DNA of 64,000 nucleotides from Triglochin maritima (Eukaryota > Streptophyta > Magnoliopsida > Alismatales > Juncaginaceae): NCBI GenBank assembly GCA_963682175.1, contig OY821786.1, positions 33,721,501 to 33,785,500 of the forward strand. Direction: 5' to 3'. Within the stretch, counting starts at the first letter, position 1, and each line of letters opens with the position of its first letter. The notes beneath the pieces are model-generated. The model did no database searches. It saw nothing but the letters and a program-made list of their open reading frames with translations, and was not told the DNA's origin. Shown here piece after piece: positions 7,924 through 50,157 of this stretch. The translations under genes were made by a program, and so were the position numbers.

Positions 7924-10011
7924 TTAGTAGCCCTTGTAGATTGGTGGTGGTGGTGACGAGTAGTCAAATCCTGTGATGGGTGGGAGGACGAAGACCGGTG
8001 GTGGTGATTGCACTGGCGAGGGTGGTGGAGGTGACAACATGGGCTTTGATGGTGGTGGTGGAGAATGGACTGGAGGAGGTGGTGGAGAATGGACTGGAGG
8101 AGGCGGTGAGTGGACAGGTGGTGGTGGAGGTGATTGCACGGGTGGGGGTGGTGGAGAATGGACTGGAGGAGGTGGTGGAGAATGGACTGGAGGAGGCGGT
8201 GAGTGGACAGGTGGTGGTGGAGGTGATTGCACGGGTGGGCGTGGTGGATAGTGGACTGGAGGTGGTGGCGGCGGCGAGTAGACAGGTGGAGGTGGAGAAT
8301 GGGTTGGAGGTGGTGGTGGTGGCGGAGAGGTCACTGGAGGAGGTGGTGAATAGATTAATGGAGGTGGTGGTGAGTGGACCGGAGGTGGTGGTGAGAGGAC
8401 CGGTGGTGGTGGTGGTGACTGGACAGGAGGTGGTGGTGGTGGCGGAGAGGTCACTGGAGGAGGTGGTGAATAGATTAATGGAGGTGGTGGTGACTGGACC
8501 GGAGGTGGTGGTGAGAGGACCGGTGGTGGTGGTGGTGACTGGACCGGAGGTGGTGGTGGTGGCGGAGAGGTCACTGGAGGAGGTGGTGAATAGATTAATG
8601 GAGGTGGTGGTGACTGGACCGGAGGTGGTGGTGGTGGCGGAGAGGTTACTGGAGGAGGTGGAGACCGTGCCGGATAAATAGGACTTGACCCACTTTGTGG
8701 TGGTGGTGGCGGAGGAGGAGGAGGAGACTTCACAGGAGTCAATGGACTCGACCCACTTTGTGGTGGAGATCTCACCGGAGTTACTGGGCTCGACCCACTT
8801 TTTGGCGAAGATTTTCCACACTTTGATTTCCCACAGTCAACATGTTTGTTGACCACCGGAGCACACTCCTTAGAACTCTTTTGTTTTGGCCTTCCTAGAA
8901 TGCAATTACTAACATCTTCGAGGATCAGGTGAGACGATCTCGGTTTTCGGCAAGCTGATCCTTCATCACCCTTGATGTAGTTGAACGAGAAGTTGAAATT
9001 GGCCAACCTCGGCAGCTCACACACCTCAGCTGGAATAAATCCAGTGAGCTTGTTATTCGACACGTCAATCTCCTCTACCGATTTCAACCCCTGGAGTGTC
9101 TTTGGCAGCTCCCCAACAAGCGAATTAGAGCTCACATCCACCACATTGGCATTCGAAAGCGAGCCAATTTCAATTGGTAGACAACCTGAGATGTTATTAT
9201 TCAAAACGACCAACTCCGCCAAAGTGTCACCCATGTTCCCAATGCTCGAGGGAATGCACCCGCTCAACTTGTTGTTGGCGAGCACCAATACAGAGACGGT
9301 TGAGTTCCCCATAGTCTCAGGTATTGAACCGACAAACCGATTGTCATTTAGGAAGAGAGCGTCGAGGTTTTTTTCGAATATTTCTGATGGAATCGGACCC
9401 TCAAATTCATTGTAACGAATATCAAGATATCGTAGGACTGGCATTCCAATAACTGGACCTGGAAATGGCCCTACAAAGCGGTTGTTACTAACATCAAGCT
9501 CGTGGAGGAGTGTTAGCCTTGACATGGTTTTGGGAATGATCCCACAAAATCTATTGGAGTTAATGTGGAAGAGAGCGATGTCGGTGAGTAGGCCGAGTTC
9601 CGCTGGGAGGTACCCAGCGATATCAGCCCCATTAAGATCAACGCCTGCTACAACATCCAATGATGGCTCATCGAGCGCCTTAGCGCAGAAAACGCCATTG
9701 TAGGAGCAAACGTCAGGGCCAACCCAGTTGCTAGTGAAGTTGGAGGGATCAGAGAAGATGGCGCGCTTCAATGCTTGTAAGGCAATGTAGGCGTGTCGAA
9801 GTCGTTGGCTTTTGAATTTAACCTTGATTTGAATGTCGAACTCGAAGTCGTCTGGTAGCTCACGTAATGTGAGAAGTTGGCGACGAGCGATGGAGGCAGC
9901 GTCCACGTCTGTCGCCAAAGTTAGGGTGGATGAAATGACGACAAACAAAAGAAGTGTTTTCATGAGGAGAAGAAGGGTCGGGCGGGCACCTGAGAACTTG
10001 GGCCACGCCAT
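7924..10011 (-). CDS. leucine-rich repeat extensin (LRX-like)
   Basis: Single-exon, 695-residue cell-wall protein. LRX proteins bind RALF peptides and pectin through their LRRs and are anchored in the wall by the extensin tail. A hydrophobic signal peptide (MKTLLLFVVISS) starts at Met17, so translation from Met17 is as likely as from Met1. The LRR cap follows (ALKRAIFSDPSNFTSNW, then DVCSYNGVFC), then about ten LRRs (roughly residues 110-360), then a Cys hinge (residues around GRPKQKSSKEC and HVDCGKSKC). From about residue 400 to the end come SPPPP repeats with interspersed Tyr (IYSPPPP, VYSPPPP), the Hyp-glycosylation and cross-linking type. It ends in PPPPIYKGY. No break is seen. Pollen and vegetative LRX types cannot be separated from sequence alone. 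Confidence 0.93.
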   Translation of the reverse strand: MAWPKFSGARPTLLLLMKTLLLFVVISSTLTLATDVDAASIARRQLLTLRELPDDFEFDIQIKVKFKSQRLRHAYIALQALKRAIFSDPSNFTSNWVGPDVCSYNGVFCAKALDEPSLDVVAGVDLNGADIAGYLPAELGLLTDIALFHINSNRFCGIIPKTMSRLTLLHELDVSNNRFVGPFPGPVIGMPVLRYLDIRYNEFEGPIPSEIFEKNLDALFLNDNRFVGSIPETMGNSTVSVLVLANNKLSGCIPSSIGNMGDTLAELVVLNNNISGCLPIEIGSLSNANVVDVSSNSLVGELPKTLQGLKSVEEIDVSNNKLTGFIPAEVCELPRLANFNFSFNYIKGDEGSACRKPRSSHLILEDVSNCILGRPKQKSSKECAPVVNKHVDCGKSKCGKSSPKSGSSPVTPVRSPPQSGSSPLTPVKSPPPPPPPPPQSGSSPIYPARSPPPPVTSPPPPPPPVQSPPPPLIYSPPPPVTSPPPPPPPVQSPPPPPVLSPPPPVQSPPPPLIYSPPPPVTSPPPPPPPVQSPPPPPVLSPPPPVHSPPPPLIYSPPPPVTSPPPPPPPTHSPPPPVYSPPPPPPVHYPPRPPVQSPPPPPVHSPPPPVHSPPPPPVHSPPPPPVQSPPPPPVHSPPPPVHSPPPPPVHSPPPPSKPMLSPPPPSPVQSPPPVFVLPPITGFDYSSPPPPIYKGY
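8105..8660 (-). repeat. in-frame tandem duplications in the extensin tail
   Basis: A 120-bp unit (40 codons) is repeated about three times between 8311 and 8660: the GGCGGAGAGGTCACTGGAGG word recurs at 8321, 8441 and 8561, with a partial fourth near 8633. A separate 99-bp unit (33 codons) occurs twice, near 8105 and 8204. Both lengths are multiples of three and keep the SPPPP register. Confidence 0.85.
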
Positions 10012-18695: not shown

Positions 18696-19016
18696 GGATG
18701 GGTGGATGGATGGATAGTGGAGATGAGAATGTCAATTGTGGGTTTGGGGATGTTTGAACGTTTCGCGTCACGGACGCTGCTAACCCAGTCAGCAGAATGA
18801 CTGATGTGGGCAATCCAGTCAGCAGACGCGGCTGAGTTCGCTCTCTTCCCAGAAACAATTTGTTTGTTTAGTTTATTCCTCGTTTCGTACAAATTTCGCC
18901 ATCCCTCGCCATCCCTCATTAATGCGTCTCAAATCACTCCATTCTTTCATCATGTTGGCGTTCCTACACTCAACATTCGTCCTCCTATTTCTTCCATTCT
19001 CTTTATTAAATTCATT

Positions 19017-19166
19017 TTTTTCCGGACACACACATCAGTCATTTTCTTTAGTTTCTGGACAAGCACGTAACTTATTCCGGACACAGTTACTATTTATTCC
19101 GGACAGTTGGAATACTTATTCCGGACAGACGGAACACTTATTCCGGACAGACGAACTACTTACTCC
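19017..19166 (+). repeat. 22-bp TCCGG minisatellite, block 1 (5' of transposase)
   Basis: Six or so ATTCCGGACAGAC-type monomers, the last four exactly 22 bp apart, between the element's left end and the transposase start. In this block the plus strand reads CCGGACAGAC, opposite to blocks 2 and 3. Confidence 0.85.
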
Positions 19167-19359
19167 TGATTTTTTGTTGCTGTTGTTTTATTTTCCCGAT
19201 GCGTCCACCATCGCATTTAATGCTTTTCAAATCAGCACGTCCTCCGTCTTCTTTCTTATTGTTTGGCACGTCACGAAGATACAAATATGAGTGTCTAGGT
19301 TATTCCGATCCTACGAACCATTCCTTCTTCTCTCCTTCCTCCATTTTTGTTGTACTGTA

Positions 19360-22073
19360 ATGGCACTCGTAAATGTGTCCTCACAGCCGGCTCATGCCTC
19401 CAACGTCCCTCAAGTGATGATGAATTTTCCTTCCTTCGAAGAAGCCAAAACATTTTACGTTTCATACGCCGATTCCTGTGGTTTTGGTGTGAAGATAAGG
19501 CAATCTCATTACGGTCATGGTGTTGTAATACGGGCCACTCTTACTTGCTCAAAGGAAGGTAATGCTCCCGGAAACCAAGGTGAAGGTAGATCGAAACATA
19601 GGTTATCCGGTAGGGTCGAATGCACTGCTCGGATTAGGGTCTCCGGTAATCCATCCAGAGGCTACGTAATTAACTACGTAGATCTCGAACATAATCACGC
19701 CATGCTGTCGGAAGACCAGATGCGCTTCCTCCGACAAAAACGATCCGTCCCGGAGTCCGCCAGAGCACGCATTTCGTGCAATGATGCTGCCGGTATATCT
19801 GCCGCCAAGACCATGCAATCTTTTGTGGTCGAAGCTGGAGGTCACGATAAATTGTCTTTCAACGAGCGGGACCTAAGGTTATTTATTCTCCACTTAACCT
19901 GGTTGAAGTTACGCATTTAGCTTTGTCATAAAAATTATGTTTCGCAGGAATGTTGTGAACGAGGTTAGAAACCTCAAAATGGGACCAGGAGATGCGCAAA
20001 CTATCCAAGATTATTTCATCAGGATGCAGAAGAATGATTCCCGCTTCTTTTACGTAATGGATATGGACGACGAAGGCAGACTACGAAATGTGTTCTGGGT
20101 CGACAGTCGTTCTCGAGCTGCTTACTCTTACTTTGGAGATGCAATATGTTTCGACACAACATACATAACAAACAAGTATGACATGCCTTTTGCCCCATTT
20201 GTGGGGGTAAATCACCACTACCAGTCCGTCCTACTCGGTTGCGCACTCCTCTCTTCCGAGACGACACAAAATTACATTTGGTTGTTCCAAACATGGTTGA
20301 CGTGCATGAACGGTACGTGTTTTATTTTGTCCGGCTTTGTCCATTTTACGTTGTGTGCCTGTCCGGTTACTCCCTTACATCTGTCCGGTTTACGTCTTTT
20401 GCTCGTCCGGTTTATCCTTTACGTCTGTCCGGTTTACGTATTTTGCTCGTCCGGTTTATCCCTTACGTCTGTCCTGTTTACGTCTTTTGCTCGTCCGGTT
20501 TATCCCTTACGTATGTCCGGTTTACGTCTTTTGCTCGTCCGTTTTATCCCTTACGTCTGTCCGGTTTACGTATTTTGCTCGTCCGGTTTATCCCTTACGT
20601 CTGTCCGGTTTACGTTTTTTGCGCGTCCGGTTTATCCCTTACGTATGTCCGGTTTACCCTTGACGCCTGTCCGGTTTACGTCTTTTGCTCGTCCGGTTTA
20701 TCCCTTACGTCTGTCCGGTTTACGTCTTTTGCTCGTCTGGTTTACCATTGACGTCTGTCCGGTTTACGTTATTTCTGTCCGGATTAACATATGTTTTTAT
20801 CTTGATCGCGTTGTGTGCAGATACAAGCCCCCCGGCGATCATAACAGACCAATGTGGCGCCATAGCTTCGGCTGTGAGGACTGTGTTCCCTGAATCGCGG
20901 CACAGATTTTGTATATGGCACATAATGAATAAGGCCCCTGTGAAGCTGCCCAAGAAGTACCGGGAGCATACGTTGTTTGACCTCAACAACTGTGTATTCG
21001 ATTCCAAGACTCCGGCAGAATTCGAGCGGAATTGGCAGGGATTTCTAGATGATTTCGAGTTGCACAACAATAATTGGCTCCGATCCATTTATGCAATTCG
21101 AGAGCACTGGGTACCTGCATTTTCGCGGGATTGTTTTTCCGCCGGAATGGCATCAACCCAGAGAAGTGAGGGTATGAACACCTTCTTCGATAAGTACCTC
21201 ACATCAAGGACGACACTTAAGCAGTTCGTTCAACAATACGAACTCGCACTACGCCACAAGTATGAGAAGGAAGCTCAGTCTGATTTCGATTGTCAGCATA
21301 AGGCTCCGCAATTGATTTCGAAATATCCATTCGAGAGGCAATTGAGCGAGTTGTATACGGTGGGTGTCTTCAAGAAGGTGCAGTTAGAAATTGGGAAGAT
21401 GATGTACTGCGACATCAAGGATGAGTTCAACGAGGACGACACATTGCACTTCAACGTGACCGAACATGTATTGACACATATCCTCTCATTGTCGAAACGG
21501 TTCACAGTGCAAATTATCGATGAGAAGTGGGTATGCGATTGCAGGATGTTTTATCACGTCGGTATCCTATGTTGTCACGTTTATGTTGTTATTGCCCGAA
21601 TACGTCCAAACGCGTTGCTCCCCGAGTCTTACATCGTCCACCGATGGAGGAAGGATATCCGAAGGAGCTATGGAGTCAAGTTTCCTCTTCAAAGCGGCAT
21701 AACGGGGAACGATGCGCTTCGTCGCCACGACGACATAATGGGTCGTGCGCTTTGGATCGCCAAGGCCGCTTTCGACTCAAACGACAGATATCTTCAGGCG
21801 GTAGAGGCACTTGAGTTGCTTAAGGAACGTATGCAACGACCTGATCCTGTGTTCACTGGTACATCCGTTCTCAATCCGGATAAGACAATACGGAAAGGCA
21901 GACCGCCGAGCAAACGACGGATTTCTTTGTCTGAGAAAATAATTAAAAGTAACGTTAAGAAAATCAACAGGAAGAAGGCTCTACCCCCGTTACACCCTGC
22001 AGCACCCAAACCGGGGGATCACGATTTCGATGACTGGGACATGAATTTGCATTACGAGGGAGTTCCTCCTTGA
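19360..22073 (+). CDS. FAR1/MULE-type transposase, open over 3 exons
   Basis: Exons 19360-19877, 19948-20312 and 20821-22073 join in frame to 711 residues. The first ATG is at 19360; upstream in-frame codons give only a GTG. The N-terminal FAR1-type zinc-binding region has Cys (TCSKEG, VECTAR) and LEHNH. The MULE core shows the expected DDE residues: Asp in CFDTTY, Asp in IITDQCGA and Glu in RSEGMN, plus the family's FCIWHI. A SWIM zinc finger follows (CDCRMF...GILCCHVYVV), then a basic tail. The DNA-cutting enzyme of the element should act in the nucleus. Splice 1 is phase 2, splice 2 phase 1; intron 2 is almost wholly 22-bp repeats. No stop or frameshift was found, so it may be functional. 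Confidence 0.87.
20330..20790 (+). repeat. 22-bp TCCGG minisatellite, block 2 (transposase intron 2)
   Basis: From 20340 to 20758, twenty successive monomers start exactly 22 bp apart without a slip. Two versions largely alternate (TCCGGTTTACGTCTTTTG... and TCCGGTTTATCCCTTACG...), giving a 44-bp higher-order unit. The array fills intron 2 from donor to acceptor, leaving only about 20-45 bp at each side. Confidence 0.95.
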
Positions 22074-22264
22074 TTATTGTATTTGTCCTTGGTTGGAATT
22101 ATTCCTATGTAATTTTGTTGGAAGTCATTGTAATTTTGTTGAAAGTCATTGTATGTAATTTTGTTGAAAGTCATTGTATTATTGCATAAGATTCAACCCT
22201 TTCTTTGCTTGATCGTTTGTGAATTAATTTCTCATGGCGACAAATATATTAAGTAATTTTGGTT

Positions 22265-22945
22265 TGTTGTATGTCTGTCCTGATTACGTTATATGTCTGT
22301 CGGTTTATTTTTTATTTAAGTCCGGATTAAGTGACCAGTATGTCCGGAATACGTAATTAGGCCGTCCGGATTACATTGTTTGTCTGTCCGGATTACGTTA
22401 TATGTCCGTCCGGAATAAGTTTTATTTATGTCCTGATTAAGTTACCAGTATGTCCTGTTTATGTTTTATTTATGTCCTGATTAAGTTACCAGTATGTCCG
22501 GAATACGTACTTAGGCTGTCCGGATTACATTGTTTGTCTGTCCGGATTACGTTATATGTCCGTCCGGAATAAGTTGTATTTATGTCCGGATTAAGTTACC
22601 AGTATGTCCGGATTACGTAACATCAATGTCCGGATTACGTTTTATTTATGTCCTGATTAAGTGACCAGTATGTCCGGAATACGTAATTAGGCAGTCCGGA
22701 TTACATTGTTTGTCTCTCCGGATTACGTTATATGTCCGTCCGGAATAAGTTTTATTTATGTCCGGATTAAGTTACCAGTATGTCCTGTTTATGTTTTATT
22801 TATGTCCTGATTAAGTTACCAGTATGTCCGGAATACGTAATTAGGCTGTCCGGATTACATTGTTTGTCTGTCCGGATTACGTTATATGTCCGTCCGGATT
22901 ACGTTATATGTCCGTCCGGATTACGTATCATGTATGTCCGGAAAA
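22265..22945 (+). repeat. 22-bp TCCGG minisatellite, block 3 (between the 3' ends)
   Basis: About 30 monomers, TCCGGATTACG or TCCGGAATAAG followed by variable bases and ending in TG or CG. TCCGG starts at 22321, 22343, 22365, 22387 and 22409 show the same 22-bp phase. It lies between the transposase stop and the end of the converging Ulp1 gene. Confidence 0.93.
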
Positions 22946-23079
22946 AAGAAAATCATTTATATATAAAAAACCAACACCAAATGTCATTGTATTGATAAAT
23001 CATTCAAATAGTCTATGTAATTTTAACATGTATACATGTATAACTTTGGGAAAAAAAATTTGAAACATTTTCAGGGCGT

Positions 23080-26000
23080 TTATTGTTGATCGCACATCCC
23101 AGAGTCTTCGAGTAAGAAATTGGCCAAATCGCCTCTAAAACGGTGAAGAACCTTGCTCTGCTTCGGCTTCGTCGGATCAGCATTCTCCATCAAACGCTTG
23201 ATCCAGTACAAAACGTATGGCCCGCAGTCGTTACTCCCCGCTAGCTGTCGTTGGCTACCCTTCCTGTCAACTCTCAGTGGCCATTCGACCGCCAAAAACC
23301 CTCGCCAGAATCCCGCTATCTTAGACGCGGTGCATTCATGAGTTCCGACTAAACGGTTAGGATTTTCACCTCTTTTAAGCGTGCGGGAGATGCTGTTGTA
23401 CTGAATGAACTCTGATCGAGGTCCGTGGGCAACGAACAGAGTCCAGTGGCCGGACAAACAGCATGGCTGTGCGATGACGACTTCCTCCACATTAAGTCCT
23501 TCAATTTTTGGGAGTAAATAATCTTTCTTTATATCTTCTCCCTGTCCCTCCACAATCATTTCCGATTCGAAGGTTGATAAGCAGACCACCTTTTTTTGCC
23601 CTCCTCTTCTGACGAGTACCTCAATTAGGCCGTCAAGAGTTTCGTTGGTGATTTCTGTGCCTCGCGAAATTATTTCCTTGAGATCACCCGTGCTGATAAT
23701 GCTGAGAACCCCCCTTCAGATAATATCTTTTGCTTCTCGCTCGGGAGCCGTTGCATTCAATAAACGATGTACCTCATCATTGGTCAGCATTCTCAAGGCG
23801 GTCTCATCCACATCTGGCCTCGTGGACGAAACATGGGCGGCCAGTTCATCTTTCGCTGTTTCTTCACTGGCTTCTTCGGGCCCTTTTGTTTTTGTGGTGG
23901 CTTCTTCGGCCTCCTTTATTTCTTCTTGTTTTTCTGCGGCAATCTTCTGTGCCTCATCTTGGCCAGATTTGCTTTGCGCTTCGTCTATGTGTTCTGTGCG
24001 CAAGCGTGGTTTAATGGTCCGTATTTTTTGAGGGTGCAAAAGTGGAAGCGCAACCCCAGCCTTCCTCTTTCTTTCCTCCTGTCTCCTCATAACTTCCTCC
24101 TTCCTTTCTTCCTCCTTCCTCTTCTCTCCCTCTTCCTCCCTCCGCTTTTTTCTCTCTTCCTCCGTCCTCTTCTCTCCCTCTTCCTCCTTCCTCTTGTTCC
24201 TGTCTTCCTCCTCCCTCTTCTTCCTCTCTTCCTCCCTCCGCCTTTTTCTCTCTTCCTCCTTCCTCGTCTTCCTCTCTTCCTCCTCCCTCTTATTCCTCTC
24301 ATCCTCCTCCTCCCTCCTCTTTTTTCTCTCTTCCTCCTTCCTCTTCCTCCTCCCTCTTATTCCTCTCATCCTCCTCCCTCCTCTTCTTCTCATCCTCCTC
24401 CTCCCTTCTCTTCCTCTCTTCCTCCTCCCTCCTCTTCCTCTCTTCCTCCTCCCTCTTATGCTTCTCATCCTCCTCCCTCTTCTTCTTCTCATCCTCCTCC
24501 CTCTTATTCCTCTCATTCTCCTCCCTCTTCTTCTTCTCTTCCTCCTCCCTCTTCTCCCTCTCTTCCTTGTTCCTCTTCTTCCTTTCTTCCTCCTCTCTCT
24601 TCTCCCTCTCTTCCTCCTCTCTCTTCTCCCTCTCCTCCGCCTCCCTCTTACTTCTCTCTTCCTCCTCCCTCTTTTCCCTCTCCTCCGCCTCCCTCTTATT
24701 TCTCTCTTCCTCCTCCCTCTCTTCCCTCTCCTCCGCCTCCCTCTTATTTCTCTCTTCCTCCTCCCTCTTTTCCCTCTCTTCCTCCTCCCCACGGACTCTC
24801 AGCTCACGACACTCTTCTTGAGAGATCCGGAGTTCTTCCTCCAGGTTGTTAATTTTAACGGTCGCCTCCCTAAGTGCTGCTTCGGCTCGCAGCCATTTCG
24901 TCTTCACCTCACTAAGTTCCAACTCTTGTAGCAGTGGGTCACATGGAATGCTGCATTCACTGAGTTGTATCCTTGGTAGAGTGGATGTTGAAGGTGTTTC
25001 CTTCGAGGCGACCGTTGCTTCTGCAGGAGTTGAAGGTGTTTCCTTCGCTGCGGGAGTTGCTGCTGCAGGAGGAAATTGATCCTCTGACAACAGTGAATGC
25101 TCCCGTGCACTGAGTTTTGGGGTGCCCTTCAACTCAAATTGGCCCGAGTATATCCGGGACAAGTTGATGCCTCGATCTTCCCATTTTATAAGGATTTGGC
25201 GTCTGCTAAACATTTCGGTCCAACACTTGAACCGTGGAAATGCTGACCGGGGATCCCCCAATTTGAACTTCTCGCAAAGCCACACCTGAAAACAGGAATG
25301 AGTTAAAAAACAGAAACATAACTTCCCCAGGACAGTCTCATAACGTTAATCAGAAAGACCAAACACTAATTCCGGACAGACACAACTCTTATTCTGGACA
25401 GACACAACTCTTATTCCGGACAGACGCAGACGTATTCCGGACATACAAATTACTTATTCCGGACAGACACAAGACGTATTCCGGACAGACAAGACACTCA
25501 TTCCGGACACATACAGGACTATTCCGGACTGGCAACACACTTATTCCGGACAGGCAACACACTTATTCCGGACAGAGACAACACTCATTCCGGACAACCT
25601 CAAGACACTTATTCCGGACAGAGACAACACTATTGAGGACAGACACAAAACTTATCCCGGACAGACACAAGACTTATTCCGGACAGAGACAACACTATTC
25701 AGGACAGACACAAGACTTATCGCGGACAGACACAAGACGTATTCCGGACAGACAAGACAATCATTCCGGACACATACATGACTATTCCGGACAGGCAACA
25801 CACTTATTCCGGACATAAACCAACACACTTACTCCGGACTGACACAACACTCATTCCGGACAACCACAAGACACTTATTCCGGACAACCTCAAGACACTT
25901 ATTCCGGACAGAGACAACACTATTCAGGACAGACACAAGACGTATTCCGGACAGACACAAGACGTATTCCGGACAGGCAAGACAATCATTCCGGACACAT

Positions 26001-26863
26001 ATAGGACTATTCCGGACAGGCAACACACTTATTCCGGACATAAACCAACACTACTCCGGACTGACACAACACTCATTCCGGACCAAGATGCTTACTTGTA
26101 ATACGGCAACGCAACCAGACACGTAGCCCTGCTTCATAGAGAAGTTCGCTGACGATCTCCTCCTCGAGAGGTCCCGTTGGGCTTCCTCCAGGCCTTCAAC
26201 CAAGAAAGTGTGAACCGCATTTGCCCACGCATATCTCTTGAGGCGCTTGAGGTTCTTAAGGTGTTTCGTGTACCACGCTTTAGTTCGCAGTGATCCATCG
26301 AAGAACAAAAAATGATTGAAAATCATAGAAATAAGGAGTCGGACGTGCTCCTCCTCCTCGCCCATCTTGCTCGTGGCGGTAAGATGACCCAGTAGCTGGG
26401 TGTTGTCGAGGTTAACCCCGTCACGTTTCTCTACGTACATGGCATCCATATCCACTCTCTGCCCATGTACTCTTAGTCCAAGTAGAAGGGCGACGTCTTC
26501 TACCGTAAATGGGACCACCCCAGTGGCTATTCTCAGACCGACTTCATGGGCGTCGAAGTGTTCGACGAACCAACCCAGTATCTCGTTGTCAGTTGTGACG
26601 TGAGGAAAGCTGAGGAAGTGACCGAAAGGCGTCCGTTGGAAGACATTTTTCTCCTCCTCCTTCATCCGGTCGAACTGCTTGTGAAGGGCCGCGAAACCGC
26701 ACTTGGTTTCGCGGAAGTAGTACGTGCTTCCCTTAAACCACACAAAAAATTGTTAGAGGCCAATAATGAACCTTAAAATGAACCAGAAAGAACATGGTTG
26801 ACAAAACACCTGCGCGGCTACAATTTCAGGAGCAATGGAGGTTTCAGGTAGAGAAGGATCCAT
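23080..26863 (-). pseudogene. PMD-like / coiled coil / Ulp1 protease gene of the MULE
   Basis: Exon 1 26810-26863 (MDPSLPETSIAPEIVAAQ), exon 2 26096-26731, exon 3 23080-25285, joined with GT-AG borders in phase 0. Exon 2 resembles the plant mobile domain (VGLRIATGVVPFTVEDVALL then LGLRVHG). Exon 3 starts VWLCEKFKLG, has a leucine-rich coiled coil, then about 200-250 residues of K/R-R-E-E-E repeats, and ends in a C48 (SUMO protease-type) domain with His in SGHWTLFVAHG and Cys in GSNDCGPYVLYW. Two breaks: a frameshift of one base in the GAGGAA-rich repeat near 24340, and an in-frame TGA at 23716-23718, after which the same frame resumes (RGVLSIISTG). Either could be a sequencing error, the first especially. 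In related elements such proteins are thought to serve the transposon; the exact role is unknown. Confidence 0.75.
25365..26092 (-). repeat. 22-bp TCCGG minisatellite, block 4 (intron 2 of PMD-Ulp1 gene)
   Basis: About 33 monomers, plus strand ATTCCGGACAGACACAAGAC and variants, 20-22 bp apart. It fills the intron between exons 2 and 3 of the minus-strand gene. Read in that gene's sense strand it is GTCTGTCCGGAAT, the same sense orientation as block 2 in the transposase intron. Confidence 0.93.
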
Positions 26864-27215
26864 TTTCGCCTTGTCTTGGTTTTCGTTACTGGAATGGAAA
26901 GGTTTTGGAGCAATGAAGGTTTTGGATGAGCGTATGGAAAGGAACTCCGGGTGAAATGGGGAAAGTTACTTGAATGCTGTACCGCCGCTACTGATGTACG
27001 TGAAGTCGAACCGTCTAATCGTGATTTAGGGAAATGAACCGTCGCACGGAAATGAACCGTCGCACCCAACAAATCGTGATTTAGGGAAATGAACCGTCGC
27101 ACCCAACAATTCGTAATTTACATTTCCCCGCGCAGAAGTTTTGGTTGACTGGACGCTGAACTGGCAGCTGACGTGTTATTCCACGTAGGACGCGTCACGG
27201 ACGCTCGCGTCCGTA

Positions 27216-43919: not shown

Positions 43920-44262
43920 ATTTAGTATTTTTTAATCTGATAAGGGTATAGACATCCGTTATTAGACAAATGTGACGCGTATTCCTTAATTCGAAGGATA
44001 TAGACGTTAGTTGTAACGTACCACTGACATTTAATGTTCAGGACTAGACGTCAGTCGCATTTTACGACCGACGTCTATTTGTTAAGACTAGACATCAGTT
44101 GGGAGCTTATGACCGACATCTATTTGTTAGGAATAGACGTCGACCTTTGAATGACCGACATCTAGGTATATACGACACATAGATGGACATCAGGTGAGGG
44201 AAGTCATATATCCGACATATAGAAGCCGTATATCGACATATATTCCCTTTTCTGCACTAGTG
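43920..44262 (+). mobile_element. CACTA element 3' terminus
   Basis: Ends TTTTCTGCACTAGTG, the reverse complement of CACTAGTGCAGAAAA, as expected for a CACTA end. Inside are repeated sub-terminal words (ACCGACATCTATTTGTTAGG, GACGTC-containing copies) in both strands, typical of the family. The 5' end was not found. The last 160 bp are also part of the tandem unit that follows. Confidence 0.75.
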
Positions 44263-44275
44263 TTGGAAAAAAAGT

Positions 44276-44716
44276 ATGAAAATCTGGTTGACCACTATTA
44301 GTTTGGTTGATCTAATTGAAAAGGCTTTCCTATATTCAGAAATTGAAAATCCCGAAATCAAAGCAGAACAAACGTTGTGGATTGAGAGGGACAAATTGGG
44401 TCAAGGTTGCATTTTGTTGGCTTTATCCAACGTTCTCTTCGATGTATATAGTTCGTCCTCCTCTGCCTCTATTTTTGCTAAGGATTTGTGGGATGACCTT
44501 GACAAAAAGTATAATACTGATGACTTAGGTCATGAAAAGTATAATGTTGGAAAGTTCTTGAAGTTTCAAATATTGGAGAGCAAGTCGGTTACTGAACAAG
44601 CCCACCACTTCATGAATCTAATTCACGGTTTAAAAGAGACGGACATGAAACTTCCCAAGAAGTTTCTGGTGATGTCCATCATCGAGAAGTTCCCTCGGTC
44701 CTGGGAGGAAAATTGA
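44276..44716 (+). pseudogene. Copia gag (UBN2-type) fragment, copy 1
   Basis: 146 residues beginning MKIWLTTISLVDLIEKAFLY, with LWDDLDKKYNTDDLGHEKYN, LKFQILESKSVTEQAHHFMN and a PRSWEEN end. This is the middle of a Copia gag (the UBN2 or DUF4219 region). It lacks both the N-terminus and the zinc knuckle and stops at TGA, so it is a fragment, though the frame is open. A start codon happens to lie at the fusion point with the CACTA end. Confidence 0.8.
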
Positions 44717-45332
44717 CTATGGATGACTGATGCATTGCATACATTGCATCATATGTCTTTCATTTAGATTAACTCTATATCAATAAATGCTACTAAGGTA
44801 TGTGTTTAGTCTTATTTACAGAATACAGGGACCTGAATGCAAATTACCCATATCCTGAGCATAAACACGTGCAAACGACTCATTTCTATCATAAAGACCA
44901 AGTCAAGATTATCGAGATTCAAATGGAAGTTCATCCAAGCATAAAAGCATGCAAAGACCTAATTACAAAAAGGTCAAGGACTTAAGCACAAAAGTAGCCA
45001 GGGACTTAACTGCAAAGCCGAGGACCCAACTGCAAATTACGAGTACCAAAAGATTATTTTGGAGAAGTTCTAAAGAAAAATCAATTTGGATCTCCAAATA
45101 TATGAAGAAATTAACTTGGATCTCCAAAGATATGCAATAATTAATCCGGATGCGCAAATGAGCTTATGACCGACATCTATTTGTTAGGAATAGACGTCGA
45201 CCTTTGAATGACCGACATCTAGGTATATACGACACATAGATGGACATCAGGTGAGGGAAGTCATATATCCGACATATAGAAGCCGTATATCGACATATAT
45301 TCCCTTTTCTGCACTAGTGTTGGAAAAAAAGT

Positions 45333-45773
45333 ATGAAAATCTGGTTGACCACTATTAGTTTGGTTGATCTAATTGAAAAGGCTTTCCTATATTCAGAAAT
45401 TGAAAATCCCGAAATCAAAGCAGAACAAACGTTGTGGATTGAGAGGGACAAATTGGGTCAAGGTTGCATTTTGTTGGCTTTATCCAACGTTCTCTTCGAT
45501 GTATATAGTTCGTCCTCCTCTGCCTCTATTTTTGCTAAGGATTTGTGGGATGACCTTGACAAAAAGTATAATACTGAGGACTTAGGTCATGAAAAGTATA
45601 ATGTTGGAAAGTTCTTGAAGTTTCAAATATTGGAGAGCAAGTCGGTTACTGAACAAGCCCACCACTTCATGAATCTAATTCACGGTTTAAAAGAGACGGA
45701 CATGAAACTTCCCAAGAAGTTTCTGGTGATGTCCATCATCGAGAAGTTCCCTCGGTCCTGGGAGGAAAATTGA
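45333..45773 (+). pseudogene. Copia gag fragment, copy 2
   Basis: Second copy, with Glu in place of Asp (KYNTEDLG). Confidence 0.8.
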
Positions 45774-46389
45774 CTATGGATGACTGATGCATTGCATACA
45801 TTGCATCATATGTCTTTCATTTAGATTAACTCTATATCAATAAATGCTACTAAGGTATGTGTTTAGTCTTATTTACAGAATACAGGGACCTGAATGCAAA
45901 TTACCCATATCCTGAGCATAAACACGTGCAAACGACTCATTTCTATCATAAAGACCAAGTCAAGATTATCGAGATTCAAATGGAAGTTCATCCAAGCATA
46001 AAAGCATGCAAAGACCTAATTACAAAAAGGTCAAGGACTTAAGCACAAAAGTAGCCAGGGACTTAACTGCAAAGCCGAGGACCCAACTGCAAATTACGAG
46101 TACCAAAAGATTATTTTGGAGAAGTTCTAAAGAAAAATCAATTTGGATCTCCAAATATATGAAGAAATTAACTTGGATCTCCAAAGATATGCAATAATTA
46201 ATCCGGATGCGCAAATGAGCTTATGACCGACATCTATTTGTTAGGAATAGACGTCGACCTTTGAATGACCGACATCTAGGTATATACGACACATAGATGG
46301 ACATCAGGTGAGGGAAGTCATATATCCGACATATAGAAGCCGTATATCGACATATATTCCCTTTTCTGCACTAGTGTTGGAAAAAAAGT

Positions 46390-46830
46390 ATGAAAATCTG
46401 GTTGACCACTATTAGTTTGGTTGATCTAATTGAAAAGGCTTTCCTATATTCAGAAATTGAAAATCCCGAAATCAAAGCAGAACAAACGTTGTGGATTGAG
46501 AGGGACAAATTGGGTCAAGGTTGCATTTTGTTGGCTTTATCCAACGTTCTCTTCGATGTATATAGTTCGTCCTCCTCTGCCTCTATTTTTGCTAAGGATT
46601 TGTGGGATGACCTTGACAAAAAGTATAATACTGAGGACTTAGGTCATGAAAAGTATAATGTTGGAAAGTTCTTGAAGTTTCAAATATTGGAGAGCAAGTC
46701 GGTTACTGAACAAGCCCACCACTTCATGAATCTAATTCACGGTTTAAAAGAGACGGACATGAAACTTCCCAAGAAGTTTCTGGTGATGTCCATCATCGAG
46801 AAGTTCCCTCGGTCCTGGGAGGAAAATTGA
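46390..46830 (+). pseudogene. Copia gag fragment, copy 3
   Basis: Third copy; protein identical to copy 2. Confidence 0.8.
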
Positions 46831-47446
46831 CTATGGATGACTGATGCATTGCATACATTGCATCATATGTCTTTCATTTAGATTAACTCTATATCAATAA
46901 ATGCTACTAAGGTATGTGTTTAGTCTTATTTACAGAATACAGGGACCTGAATGCAAATTACCCATATCCTGAGCATAAACACGTGCAAACGACTCATTTC
47001 TATCATAAAGACCAAGTCAAGATTATCGAGATTCAAATGGAAGTTCATCCAAGCATAAAAGCATGCAAAGACCTAATTACAAAAAGGTCAAGGACTTAAG
47101 CACAAAAGTAGCCAGGGACTTAACTGCAAAGCCGAGGACCCAACTGCAAATTACGAGTACCAAAAGATTATTTTGGAGAAGTTCTAAAGAAAAATCAATT
47201 TGGATCTCCAAATATATGAAGAAATTAACTTGGATCTCCAAAGATATGCAATAATTAATCCGGATGCGCAAATGAGCTTATGACCGACATCTATTTGTTA
47301 GGAATAGACGTCGACCTTTGAATGACCGACATCTAGGTATATACGACACATAGATGGACATCAGGTGAGGGAAGTCATATATCCGACATATAGAAGCCGT
47401 ATATCGACATATATTCCCTTTTCTGCACTAGTGTTGGAAAAAAAGT

Positions 47447-47887
47447 ATGAAAATCTGGTTGACCACTATTAGTTTGGTTGATCTAATTGAAAAGGCTTTC
47501 CTATATTCAGAAATTGAAAATCCCGAAATCAAAGCAGAACAAACGTTGTGGATTGAGAGGGACAAATTGGGTCAAGGTTGCATTTTGTTGGCTTTATCCA
47601 ACGTTCTCTTCGATGTATATAGTTCGTCCTCCTCTGCCTCTATTTTTGCTAAGGATTTGTGGGATGACCTTGACAAAAAGTATAATACTGAGGACTTAGG
47701 TCATGAAAAGTATAATGTTGGAAAGTTCTTGAAGTTTCAAATATTGGAGAGCAAGTCGGTTACTGAACAAGCCCACCACTTCATGAATCTAATTCACGGT
47801 TTAAAAGAGACGGACATGAAACTTCCCAAGAAGTTTCTGGTGATGTCCATCATCGAGAAGTTCCCTCGGTCCTGGGAGGAAAATTGA
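47447..47887 (+). pseudogene. Copia gag fragment, copy 4
   Basis: Fourth copy; protein identical to copy 2. Confidence 0.8.
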
Positions 47888-48503
47888 CTATGGATGACTG
47901 ATGCATTGCATACATTGCATCATATGTCTTTCATTTAGATTAACTCTATATCAATAAATGCTACTAAGGTATGTGTTTAGTCTTATTTACAGAATACAGG
48001 GACCTGAATGCAAATTACCCATATCCTGAGCATAAACACGTGCAAACGACTCATTTCTATCATAAAGACCAAGTCAAGATTATCGAGATTCAAATGGAAG
48101 TTCATCCAAGCATAAAAGCATGCAAAGACCTAATTACAAAAAGGTCAAGGACTTAAGCACAAAAGTAGCCAGGGACTTAACTGCAAAGCCGAGGACCCAA
48201 CTGCAAATTACGAGTACCAAAAGATTATTTTGGAGAAGTTCTAAAGAAAAATCAATTTGGATCTCCAAATATATGAAGAAATTAACTTGGATCTCCAAAG
48301 ATATGCAATAATTAATCCGGATGCGCAAATGAGCTTATGACCGACATCTATTTGTTAGGAATAGACGTCGACCTTTGAATGACCGACATCTAGGTATATA
48401 CGACACATAGATGGACATCAGGTGAGGGAAGTCATATATCCGACATATAGAAGCCGTATATCGACATATATTCCCTTTTCTGCACTAGTGTTGGAAAAAA
48501 AGT

Positions 48504-48944
48504 ATGAAAATCTGGTTGACCACTATTAGTTTGGTTGATCTAATTGAAAAGGCTTTCCTATATTCAGAAATTGAAAATCCCGAAATCAAAGCAGAACAAA
48601 CGTTGTGGATTGAGAGGGACAAATTGGGTCAAGGTTGCATTTTGTTGGCTTTATCCAACGTTCTCTTCGATGTATATAGTTCGTCCTCCTCTGCCTCTAT
48701 TTTTGCTAAGGATTTGTGGGATGACCTTGACAAAAAGTATAATACTGAGGACTTAGGTCATGAAAAGTATAATGTTGGAAAGTTCTTGAAGTTTCAAATA
48801 TTGGAGAGCAAGTCGGTTACTGAACAAGCCCACCACTTCATGAATCTAATTCACGGTTTAAAAGAGACGGACATGAAACTTCCCAAGAAGTTTCTGGTGA
48901 TGTCCATCATCGAGAAGTTCCCTCGGTCCTGGGAGGAAAATTGA
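48504..48944 (+). pseudogene. Copia gag fragment, copy 5
   Basis: Fifth copy; protein identical to copy 2. Only after this copy does the LTR-like sequence continue into a full LTR end and primer site. Confidence 0.8.
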
Positions 48945-48956
48945 CTATGGATGACT

Positions 48957-50157
48957 GATGCATTGCATACATTGCATCATATGTCTTTCATTTAGATTAA
49001 CTCTATATCAATAAATGCTACTAAGGTATGTGTTTAGTCTTATTTACAGAATACAGGGACCTGAATGCAAATTACCCATATCCTGAGCATAAACACGTGC
49101 AAACGACTCATTTCTATCATAAAGACCAAGTCAAGATTATCGAGATTCAAATGGAAGTTCATCCAAGCATAAAAGCATGCAAAGACCTAATTACAAAAAG
49201 GTCAAGGACTTAAGCACAAAAGTAGCCAGGGACTTAACTGCAAAGCCGAGGACCCAACTGCAAATTACGAGTACCAAAAGATTATTTTGGAGAAGTTCTA
49301 AAGAAAAATCAATTTGGATCTCCAAATATATGAAGAAATTAACTTGGATCTCCAAAGATATGCAATAATTAATCCGGATGCGCAAATGACAACTAAAACA
49401 TACCATAAAGACACGAGAAAAATTCGGGTCGATTCTGAGCCAAAAAGGTGGCGATTCCGCCGCACCTCATGTAGAAATTGTGGCGATTACGCCGCACAAA
49501 AGTTGATCCGTGTGCTCAAATTTTTACCAATGTTGTATTGACGCGTGTACTTTCCGTTTATATATTGGGATCCCTTGTATCGGCTATAAATAGCCCCGAA
49601 ACGATGTTGTAAAGAGTCTTGGTTTTTGTTCCAAATTTTAGTAATAAAATTCTGTTCTTTTAATTCTTGTTTTAGTTTTCTTTTTTTTAGTTTCTCTAGG
49701 ACCCCTTCTCCTTCCCTCCATCCATGAGTTTCTAACTCTCTCCAAATGGTGGGGTGACGGATTTAGGGTGATGAGAAGAAAAATAAAGTTATTATTTTAA
49801 TTTCGTGTTAGTATATTTTGATTACTTGAGTTTATGTTGAGTCATTTATCATGTAATGCTTTATATAACTAATGTGATTTATTATAAGTTTCAGAATTCT
49901 CTAATCAAAACCCGACATCTAAACCTCCACCCGCTGGACTCCCATTCATAGTTGTTTTCTTTTTAATCTGTTTTTGTTGTTCTTGTTTTAGATAATTAAA
50001 AACCAAAAATCTCAAACCAACCTCATTATTGTTCTCTCTTTCTCTCCTTAATCGAAAACCACAAAAATAACAATATCCCTCCCTCCTTGTGTTCGACCCG
50101 TACTTGTCACCGCTTCATCGCGGTCGTGCACTTGCGGTATAAATAAAATTCTCATCA
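48957..50157 (+). repeat. 5' LTR of the gag-pro element (approximate)
   Basis: Inferred from TGATGCATTGCATAC near the left and CTCATCA just before the primer site. It includes GGCTATAAATAGCC (about 49584, promoter-like), a poly-A-type AATAAA at about 49640, and the box GTGCACTTGCGGTATAAATA at 50127-50145 shared with two other LTR pieces in the window. Its left 430 bp are also in each tandem unit. Confidence 0.5.

What the first reader, a model, noticed from the sequence alone, without database searches (positions are those of the whole stretch)
19017..26092. 22-bp phased TCCGG arrays fill the non-coding parts of one MULE
Seen: four blocks, about 85-90 monomers together, occupy the 5' flank, transposase intron 2, the gap between the convergent genes, and intron 2 of the PMD-Ulp1 gene, and none of the exons. 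Block 2 keeps exact 22-bp spacing over twenty monomers. 22 bp is close to two helical turns, so TCCGG cores face one side of the DNA. Known: VANDAL-family MULEs carry short-motif tandem repeats in their non-coding regions that recruit an element-encoded VANC protein which removes silencing marks. Inference: this is an analogous but sequence-unrelated self-recognition system, with a binder encoded by the element, perhaps in the PMD-coiled-coil-Ulp1 gene. Each TCCGG core also contains a CpG, so the arrays could be methylation sensors.
Basis: partly seen in the sequence, partly recalled or inferred. Interest (0 to 1): 0.88.

Follow-up and report, generated by a model that had tools for sequence, protein, structure and literature searches.

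The report
Plant jumping gene with landing-pad arrays
A plant jumping gene carries about ninety copies of one short DNA word, spaced 22 letters apart in its non-coding parts, which look like docking sites for a protein of its own that could help it escape silencing by its host.

Summary
Four arrays (92 in-register monomers) fill the 5' flank, transposase intron 2, the gap between the convergent genes, and intron 2 of the second gene; 75 of 88 steps are exactly 22 bp. All share one oriented word, ACKTAWWCCGGACAKAC: 60 matches at up to 2 mismatches lie in the blocks, none elsewhere in 64 kb. The CCGGAC core is as alike between blocks as within (0.91, 0.91); spacers are block-specific (0.39, 0.54). 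Of 8 close relatives, seen only as proteins from unnamed JGI/ENA contigs, 5 have frames entering these introns; 4 can encode at least two spaced cores there, one of them only 64% identical. I read this as a VANC-like self-recognition array; binding and anti-silencing are inferred. It is not VANDAL: FAR1-MULE-SWIM transposase, no VANC domains or motifs, PMD instead. Corrections: cores do not share one helical face over long runs; the common core is CCGGAC; the second gene is broken in this copy. Genome-wide exclusivity is untested: the genome server did not complete.

The parts
18764..18778 (+). left copy of a 15-bp direct repeat CGCGTCACGGACGCT, provisional left end of the element, 69 bp upstream of the likely start codon of a CRM-domain host gene (minus strand)
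   Evidence: longer than a usual MULE target-site duplication, so the end is provisional
19020..19166 (+). Block 1: 6 in-register monomers plus one isolated core, motif in + orientation, 5' flank of the transposase gene
19360..19877 (+). transposase exon 1 (FAR1 DNA-binding domain)
19948..20312 (+). transposase exon 2 (MULE domain, first half)
20313..20820 (-). transposase intron 2, filled by Block 2: 21 in-register monomers, motif on the minus strand, 44-bp higher-order repeat
20821..22073 (+). transposase exon 3 (MULE second half, SWIM); whole CDS open, 711 aa
22266..22942 (-). Block 3: 31 monomers between the convergent genes, motif on the minus strand, 154/176-bp higher-order repeat
23080..23715 (-). 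Ulp1-like (Peptidase_C48) part of the second gene, behind an in-frame TGA at 23716-23718
24301..25285 (-). second gene exon 3: end of PMD, then K/E/R-rich coiled-coil-like repeat; frame ends at 24301
25362..26083 (+). Block 4: 34 monomers in intron 2 (26095-25286) of the second gene, motif on the + strand (antisense to the gene)
26096..26731 (-). second gene exon 2 (plant mobile domain)
26810..26863 (-). second gene exon 1
27191..27205 (+). right copy of the 15-bp direct repeat, provisional right end

Best explanation
The arrays are clustered binding sites through which the MULE's own product recognises the element and keeps it from being silenced, as VANC does for VANDAL. Shown: 92 in-register copies of one oriented word in four non-coding places, with a core conserved between blocks far better than its spacers, and signs of the same arrays at the same intron sites in relatives. 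Inferred: (1) a protein reads (T)AWWCCGGAC; (2) it is element-encoded, most likely the PMD-coiled-coil(-Ulp1) protein from the convergent gene, with the FAR1 transposase as second candidate; (3) high local density of sites gives specificity; (4) binding removes or excludes silencing marks over the element and so allows transcription. Roughly: binding-site array 0.75; element-encoded reader given that 0.8; anti-silencing role given that 0.75.
For:: core diversity 0.08-0.17 against 0.43-0.61 outside the core and its TAWW flank, in a nearly gapless register. CCGGAC identity 0.91 within and between blocks, spacers 0.54 and 0.39, chance 0.27; local amplification explains the spacers but not a shared core; no hit outside the blocks at up to 2 mismatches. 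P0001 (97% identical in exon 3) can encode five TCCGG sites at 22-bp steps in intron 2, in the window's own register (0 of 5000 shuffles); P0124 (64% identical in PMD) can encode two TCCGGAATA sites 42 bp apart in the PMD-gene intron, with a CGGAATAC site between them (steps 20 and 22; 0 of 5000 shuffles, the word chosen after looking). Open transposase frame with FAR1, MULE and SWIM. Literature: VANC21 and VANC6 targets are tandem motifs in non-coding regions of their elements (introns, intergenic and terminal regions for VANC21; PMC5735166, parts 1-3 of 6 read). Ikeda et al. speculate that MULE-captured PMD proteins serve anti-silencing (PMC5418596, passages).
Against: No binding, expression or methylation data. 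The second gene is disrupted in this copy. VANC domains are absent. VANDAL targets diverge fast between related families, whereas this word seems kept in a relative with 64% PMD identity. I saw no report of PMD binding DNA in the passages I read, and the PMD model was useless (pLDDT 38). In P0124 only one of the three sites permits the full GTCCGG. Restriction of the arrays to this family genome-wide is untested.
Confidence: 0.45

Rival explanations
1. The arrays are binding sites of the FAR1-domain transposase itself, acting as internal regulatory or transposition-enhancing sites, in the way recalled for CACTA TnpA at subterminal repeats or MURA at Mu ends.
For: The transposase is the only gene with an uninterrupted frame in this copy and has a FAR1 DNA-binding domain. 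TnpA and MURA are linked to loss of methylation (PMC10398659, discussion read).
Against: Transposase sites are expected at the ends; three of the four blocks are internal, two of them in introns, and the provisional ends carry other repeats (GGAAATGAACCGTCGCAC x3, CCAGTCAGCAGA x2). The FHY3/FAR1 site that I recall (CACGCGC) does not resemble CCGGAC.
Confidence: 0.2
2. Neutral minisatellite growth: a short word in the ancestor was amplified by slippage wherever exons did not forbid it.
For: Higher-order repeats of 44, 154/176 and 65/87 bp show recent local amplification. The element's K/E/R coding repeat is itself a 24-bp tandem array. Monomers were called by their core, which biases towards conserved cores.
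Against: Neutral homogenisation should not keep six core bases equal between oppositely oriented, separately amplified blocks while spacers diverge, nor keep the word in a relative at 64% identity. The register is almost gapless, so the calling bias is small.
Confidence: 0.15
3. Host-factor or RNA-level role: a cluster of host transcription-factor sites, intronic splicing elements, or a source of small RNA from oppositely oriented blocks.
For: Both intronic arrays read GTCCGG on the sense strand of their own gene. Opposite blocks are 70-78% complementary over 76-116 nt in the 25 longest of 198 inverted pairs.
Against: Blocks 1 and 3 are not in introns. The longest exact inverted match between opposite blocks is 17 bp, poor for 21-24-nt small RNA from hairpins.
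Confidence: 0.1

Closest known systems
VANDAL21/VANDAL6 with VANC (Arabidopsis anti-silencing)
   Same: short motif in same-orientation tandem repeats in introns, intergenic and terminal non-coding regions, not in exons; element-specific word; extra gene beside the transposase (PMC5735166, parts 1-3 of 6; PMC10398659, introduction and discussion)
   Different: FAR1 domain in the transposase; no DUF1985/DUF287; PMD plus Ulp1-like second gene; motif unrelated; near-strict 22-bp register; word apparently kept in a diverged relative
Kaonashi-type and other ULP-carrying MULEs, including Jittery-like ones of melon and grapevine
   Same: Ulp1-like domain in reverse orientation downstream of the transposase; Jittery-like MULEs with ULP are already described (PMC2528002, passages; PMC13317346, passages)
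   Different: the passages I saw do not mention PMD, and the words 'tandem repeat' and 'mobile domain' do not occur in PMC2528002; here the Ulp1 part lies behind a stop
PMD-bearing MULEs
   Same: a PMD gene, often antisense, is common in several plant MULE groups (PMC6446971, section 6 read; PMC5418596, passages)
   Different: in that table PMD is listed for groups 42 and 45-50, not in the Jittery row (one ORF, N-terminal FAR1); FAR1 is also listed in groups 1, 35 and an oomycete sub-group of 50

Membership tests
VANDAL/VANC anti-silencing elements | tandem short-motif arrays in non-coding parts of the element | tested here: met
VANDAL/VANC anti-silencing elements | VANC protein with DUF1985 / DUF287 | tested here: not met
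   neither family listed at E up to 1 (up to 10 for the spliced N-terminal 395 aa); PMD found instead
VANDAL/VANC anti-silencing elements | published motifs YAGTATTAY or AGTTGTMC in the element | tested here: not met
   10 and 3 in the window, 0 in the element
VANDAL/VANC anti-silencing elements | transposase without FAR1 domain, as in the VANDAL row of the table in PMC6446971 | tested here: not met
   FAR1, MULE, SWIM
VANDAL/VANC anti-silencing elements | transposase falls in the VANDAL clade of a tree | not tested
   no VANDAL sequences were fetched and no tree was made
VANDAL/VANC anti-silencing elements | encoded protein binds the arrays and removes methylation | not testable with these tools
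   needs DAP-seq/EMSA and bisulfite data
Jittery-like MULE | FAR1 N-terminal, MULE core, SWIM C-terminal | tested here: met
   (E 1.8e-15, 1e-32, 1.1e-4); motifs FDTTY, ITDQ and RSEGMN at residues 241, 302 and 409 (their catalytic role is recalled)
Jittery-like MULE | transposase falls in the Jittery clade of a tree | not tested
   assignment rests on domain order only
Jittery-like MULE | 8-9 bp target-site duplication, with or without terminal inverted repeats | tested here: inconclusive
   a 15-bp, partly palindromic direct repeat (13 of 2000 base shuffles had any direct match of 11 bp or more); no clear terminal inverted repeat
ULP-carrying MULE | Ulp1 (Peptidase_C48) domain gene in the element | tested here: met
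   E 4.2e-4, exactly at the Pfam cut-off; disrupted by an upstream TGA

The most novel reading that the evidence does not exclude
A Jittery-type (FAR1) MULE has, independently of VANDAL, an anti-silencing system in which a PMD-coiled-coil(-Ulp1) protein reads phased CCGGAC arrays. Each core holds CG and CHG methylation sites, so binding could itself depend on methylation.
Probability: 0.3. Interest if true: 0.75.

Novelty: new variant of a known kind. Interest (0 to 1): 0.56.

Why it matters
If true, sequence-specific anti-silencing would not be a peculiarity of VANDALs. It would have arisen in, or been transferred to, another branch of MULEs with a different candidate protein, and would give PMD (whose host members MAIN and MAIL1 act in silencing) a testable molecular role. 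The word and a single monomer are short enough for a direct binding test.

Tried and rejected

Viral and prokaryote collections: the loose pattern CCGGAC x3 gave 90 stretches in viral contigs, 80 of them listed. I did not study them and take them as chance hits of an 18-base pattern. The more specific patterns gave none, nor did the relative's transposase. These collections are not plant genomes, so this is weak evidence.

PMD structure: 5-sequence alignment, pLDDT 38; no fold search was made with it. PDB sequence search: nothing for PMD; one hit at E 1.2, taken as chance, for the Ulp1 part.

Array read-through as a protein query found only P0001.

Rejected: one-face helical phasing over long runs; hairpin small-RNA source as the main role (longest exact inverted match 17 bp); a satellite spread outside the element within this window.

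Literature limit: Sasaki et al. 2022 (EMBO J, anti-silencing systems of Mu-like transposons in eudicots) is not held. From memory its abstract reports gain and loss of DUF1985, DUF287 and Ulp1 in VANC proteins and that motif density and helical periodicity matter. If it treats FAR1-type MULEs too, novelty falls. An unpublished VANC21 crystal structure is mentioned in PMC8756742 (passage); I found no paper on it.

Odds: on re-checking, the confidence in the best explanation was lowered from 0.50 to 0.45, because only one of the three sites in P0124 permits the full core and so that the figure agrees with its stated factors.

Full report
What is there. The element is a two-gene MULE whose provisional left end lies 69 bp upstream of the likely start codon of a CRM-domain gene. 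Gene 1 (+) is an open 711-aa transposase in three exons with GT-AG introns: FAR1 (E 1.8e-15), MULE (1e-32) and SWIM (1.1e-4). Gene 2 (-) has exon 1 26863-26810, exon 2 26731-26096 and exon 3 from 25285. It encodes a plant mobile domain whose match runs across intron 2 (E 4.2e-14) and a K/E/R-rich repeat. Its frame ends at 24301, while another frame continues to an in-frame TGA at 23716-23718, followed by an Ulp1-like stretch exactly at Pfam's cut-off. A splice that avoids the shift cannot be excluded, but the simplest reading is that gene 2 is broken in this copy. The 15-bp direct repeat at 18764 and 27191 marks provisional ends; it is longer than a usual MULE target-site duplication.

The arrays. 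There are 92 in-register monomers in four blocks, with 75 of 88 steps exactly 22 bp. B1 and B4 carry the word on the + strand, B2 and B3 on the - strand, so in both introns the sense strand of the surrounding gene reads GTCCGG. The oriented 17-mer ACKTAWWCCGGACAKAC (up to 2 mismatches) occurs 60 times in the blocks and nowhere else in 64 kb. Exact oriented CCGGAC occurs 73 times in the blocks and, on either strand, 10 times elsewhere in the window. Higher-order repeats differ by block (44 bp in B2, 154/176 in B3, 65/87 in B4), showing separate local amplification, yet the core is as similar between blocks (0.91) as within them, with spacers at 0.39 and 0.54. This contrast is the main argument for a shared reader. 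Monomers were called with up to 4 mismatches over 11 positions around the core (without, with, a spacing condition), so some bias to conserved cores remains; in-register gaps are nearly absent in B1-B3 (one 20-bp step in B2, one 21-bp step in B3), and B4 has 11 of 33 steps of 21, 24 or 25 bp, so few monomers can have been missed. Of the 92, 71 have the exact core. Among the 21 variants CAGGAC is commonest (10); changes of the CpG-deamination kind (CTGG, CCAG, ATGG) are 4.

Phase and methylation. At 10.5 bp per turn the core rotates 34 degrees per monomer; of the helical repeats tried only 11.0 would keep one face. CpG observed/expected is 1.39 in arrays (1.22 with cores masked), 1.11 in transposase exons, 1.07 in other non-coding parts and 0.77 in the second gene's exons, against 0.67 in the rest of the window. 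This fits a young or little-methylated element but does not separate these.

Relatives. Three protein searches (257 hits, 120 listed; 1; 4) gave eight close relatives at 54-97% identity (P0001, P0002, P0003, P0013, P0121-P0124), all from short JGI or ENA contigs without organism name; the best-scoring named plant proteins (P0004-P0007) are FAR1-related at 36-39%. I fetched these eight and three more distant ones (P0045, P0079, P0080), which I did not count. Five of the eight have reading frames that run into an array intron. P0001 permits five TCCGG sites at 22-bp steps, in the register of the window (0 of 5000 shuffles); P0002 the last two, 20 bp apart as in the window; P0121 two at 22 bp. 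P0124 (64% identical) permits two TCCGGAATA sites 42 bp apart with a CGGAATAC site between them (steps 20 and 22; 0 of 5000 shuffles, the word chosen after looking). P0122 ends at the first site, which alone means little, since single GTCCGG-capable spots also occur in exonic parts. P0003, P0013 and P0123 do not reach an intron in frame. No relative was found that reaches the intron and clearly lacks the word. Codons permit the word; the DNA was not seen.

How it most likely works. By anatomy it matches VANC target arrays: same-orientation short motifs at high density in introns, gap and flank, absent from exons (PMC5735166). I infer an element-encoded reader, most likely the gene 2 product, that binds the array and counteracts silencing. 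Host PMD proteins act in silencing, and MULE-captured PMD has been suggested to serve anti-silencing (PMC5418596, passages). The FAR1 transposase is the alternative reader. This copy would then depend on an intact gene 2 elsewhere, acting in trans as a VANC transgene does on other VANDAL copies (inference).

Membership and novelty. VANC domains, VANC motifs and the FAR1-free transposase of the VANDAL row were tested and not met, so I do not file it as a VANDAL; no tree was made. By domain order it is a Jittery-type, ULP- and PMD-carrying MULE. ULP in Jittery-like MULEs is known (PMC2528002, passages), and PMD, often antisense, is known in other MULE groups (PMC6446971, section 6). Searches listed no paper that, from its title, abstract start or the passages I read, describes phased arrays in a FAR1-type MULE; three of these lists were cut (38: 8 of 5,983; 45: 20 of 62; 80: 8 of 129), and the library omits most subscription papers and the key 2022 paper.

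Noticed in passing
window 44042-49326: Five tandem copies of a 1057-bp unit; copies 2-5 are identical to each other and 95.65% identical to copy 1 in the phase compared. The unit contains a stretch that looks like a copia gag remnant (recalled, not searched). Either a very recent amplification or an assembly effect.
   Followed up: partly
window 27030-27102: Three copies of an 18-bp word GGAAATGAACCGTCGCAC near the right end of the element, and CCAGTCAGCAGA twice near the left end (18785, 18815): possible subterminal transposase sites.
   Followed up: partly
window 24107-24789: The K/E/R-rich coding part of gene 2 is itself a 24-bp tandem repeat (28.5 copies), so the element builds tandem repeats in coding sequence too; VANC proteins are also reported to have variable regions with tandem peptide motifs (PMC5735166, part 2).
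   Followed up: no
window 20313-20820: Intron 2 of the transposase is open in one frame through the whole array (ORF 19907-20893), so intron retention would give a protein with an array-coded stretch.
   Followed up: no
window 8050-8661: GGT-rich tandem repeat region with periods of 24, 45, 75, 93 and 120 bp, mostly multiples of three and so perhaps coding.
   Followed up: no
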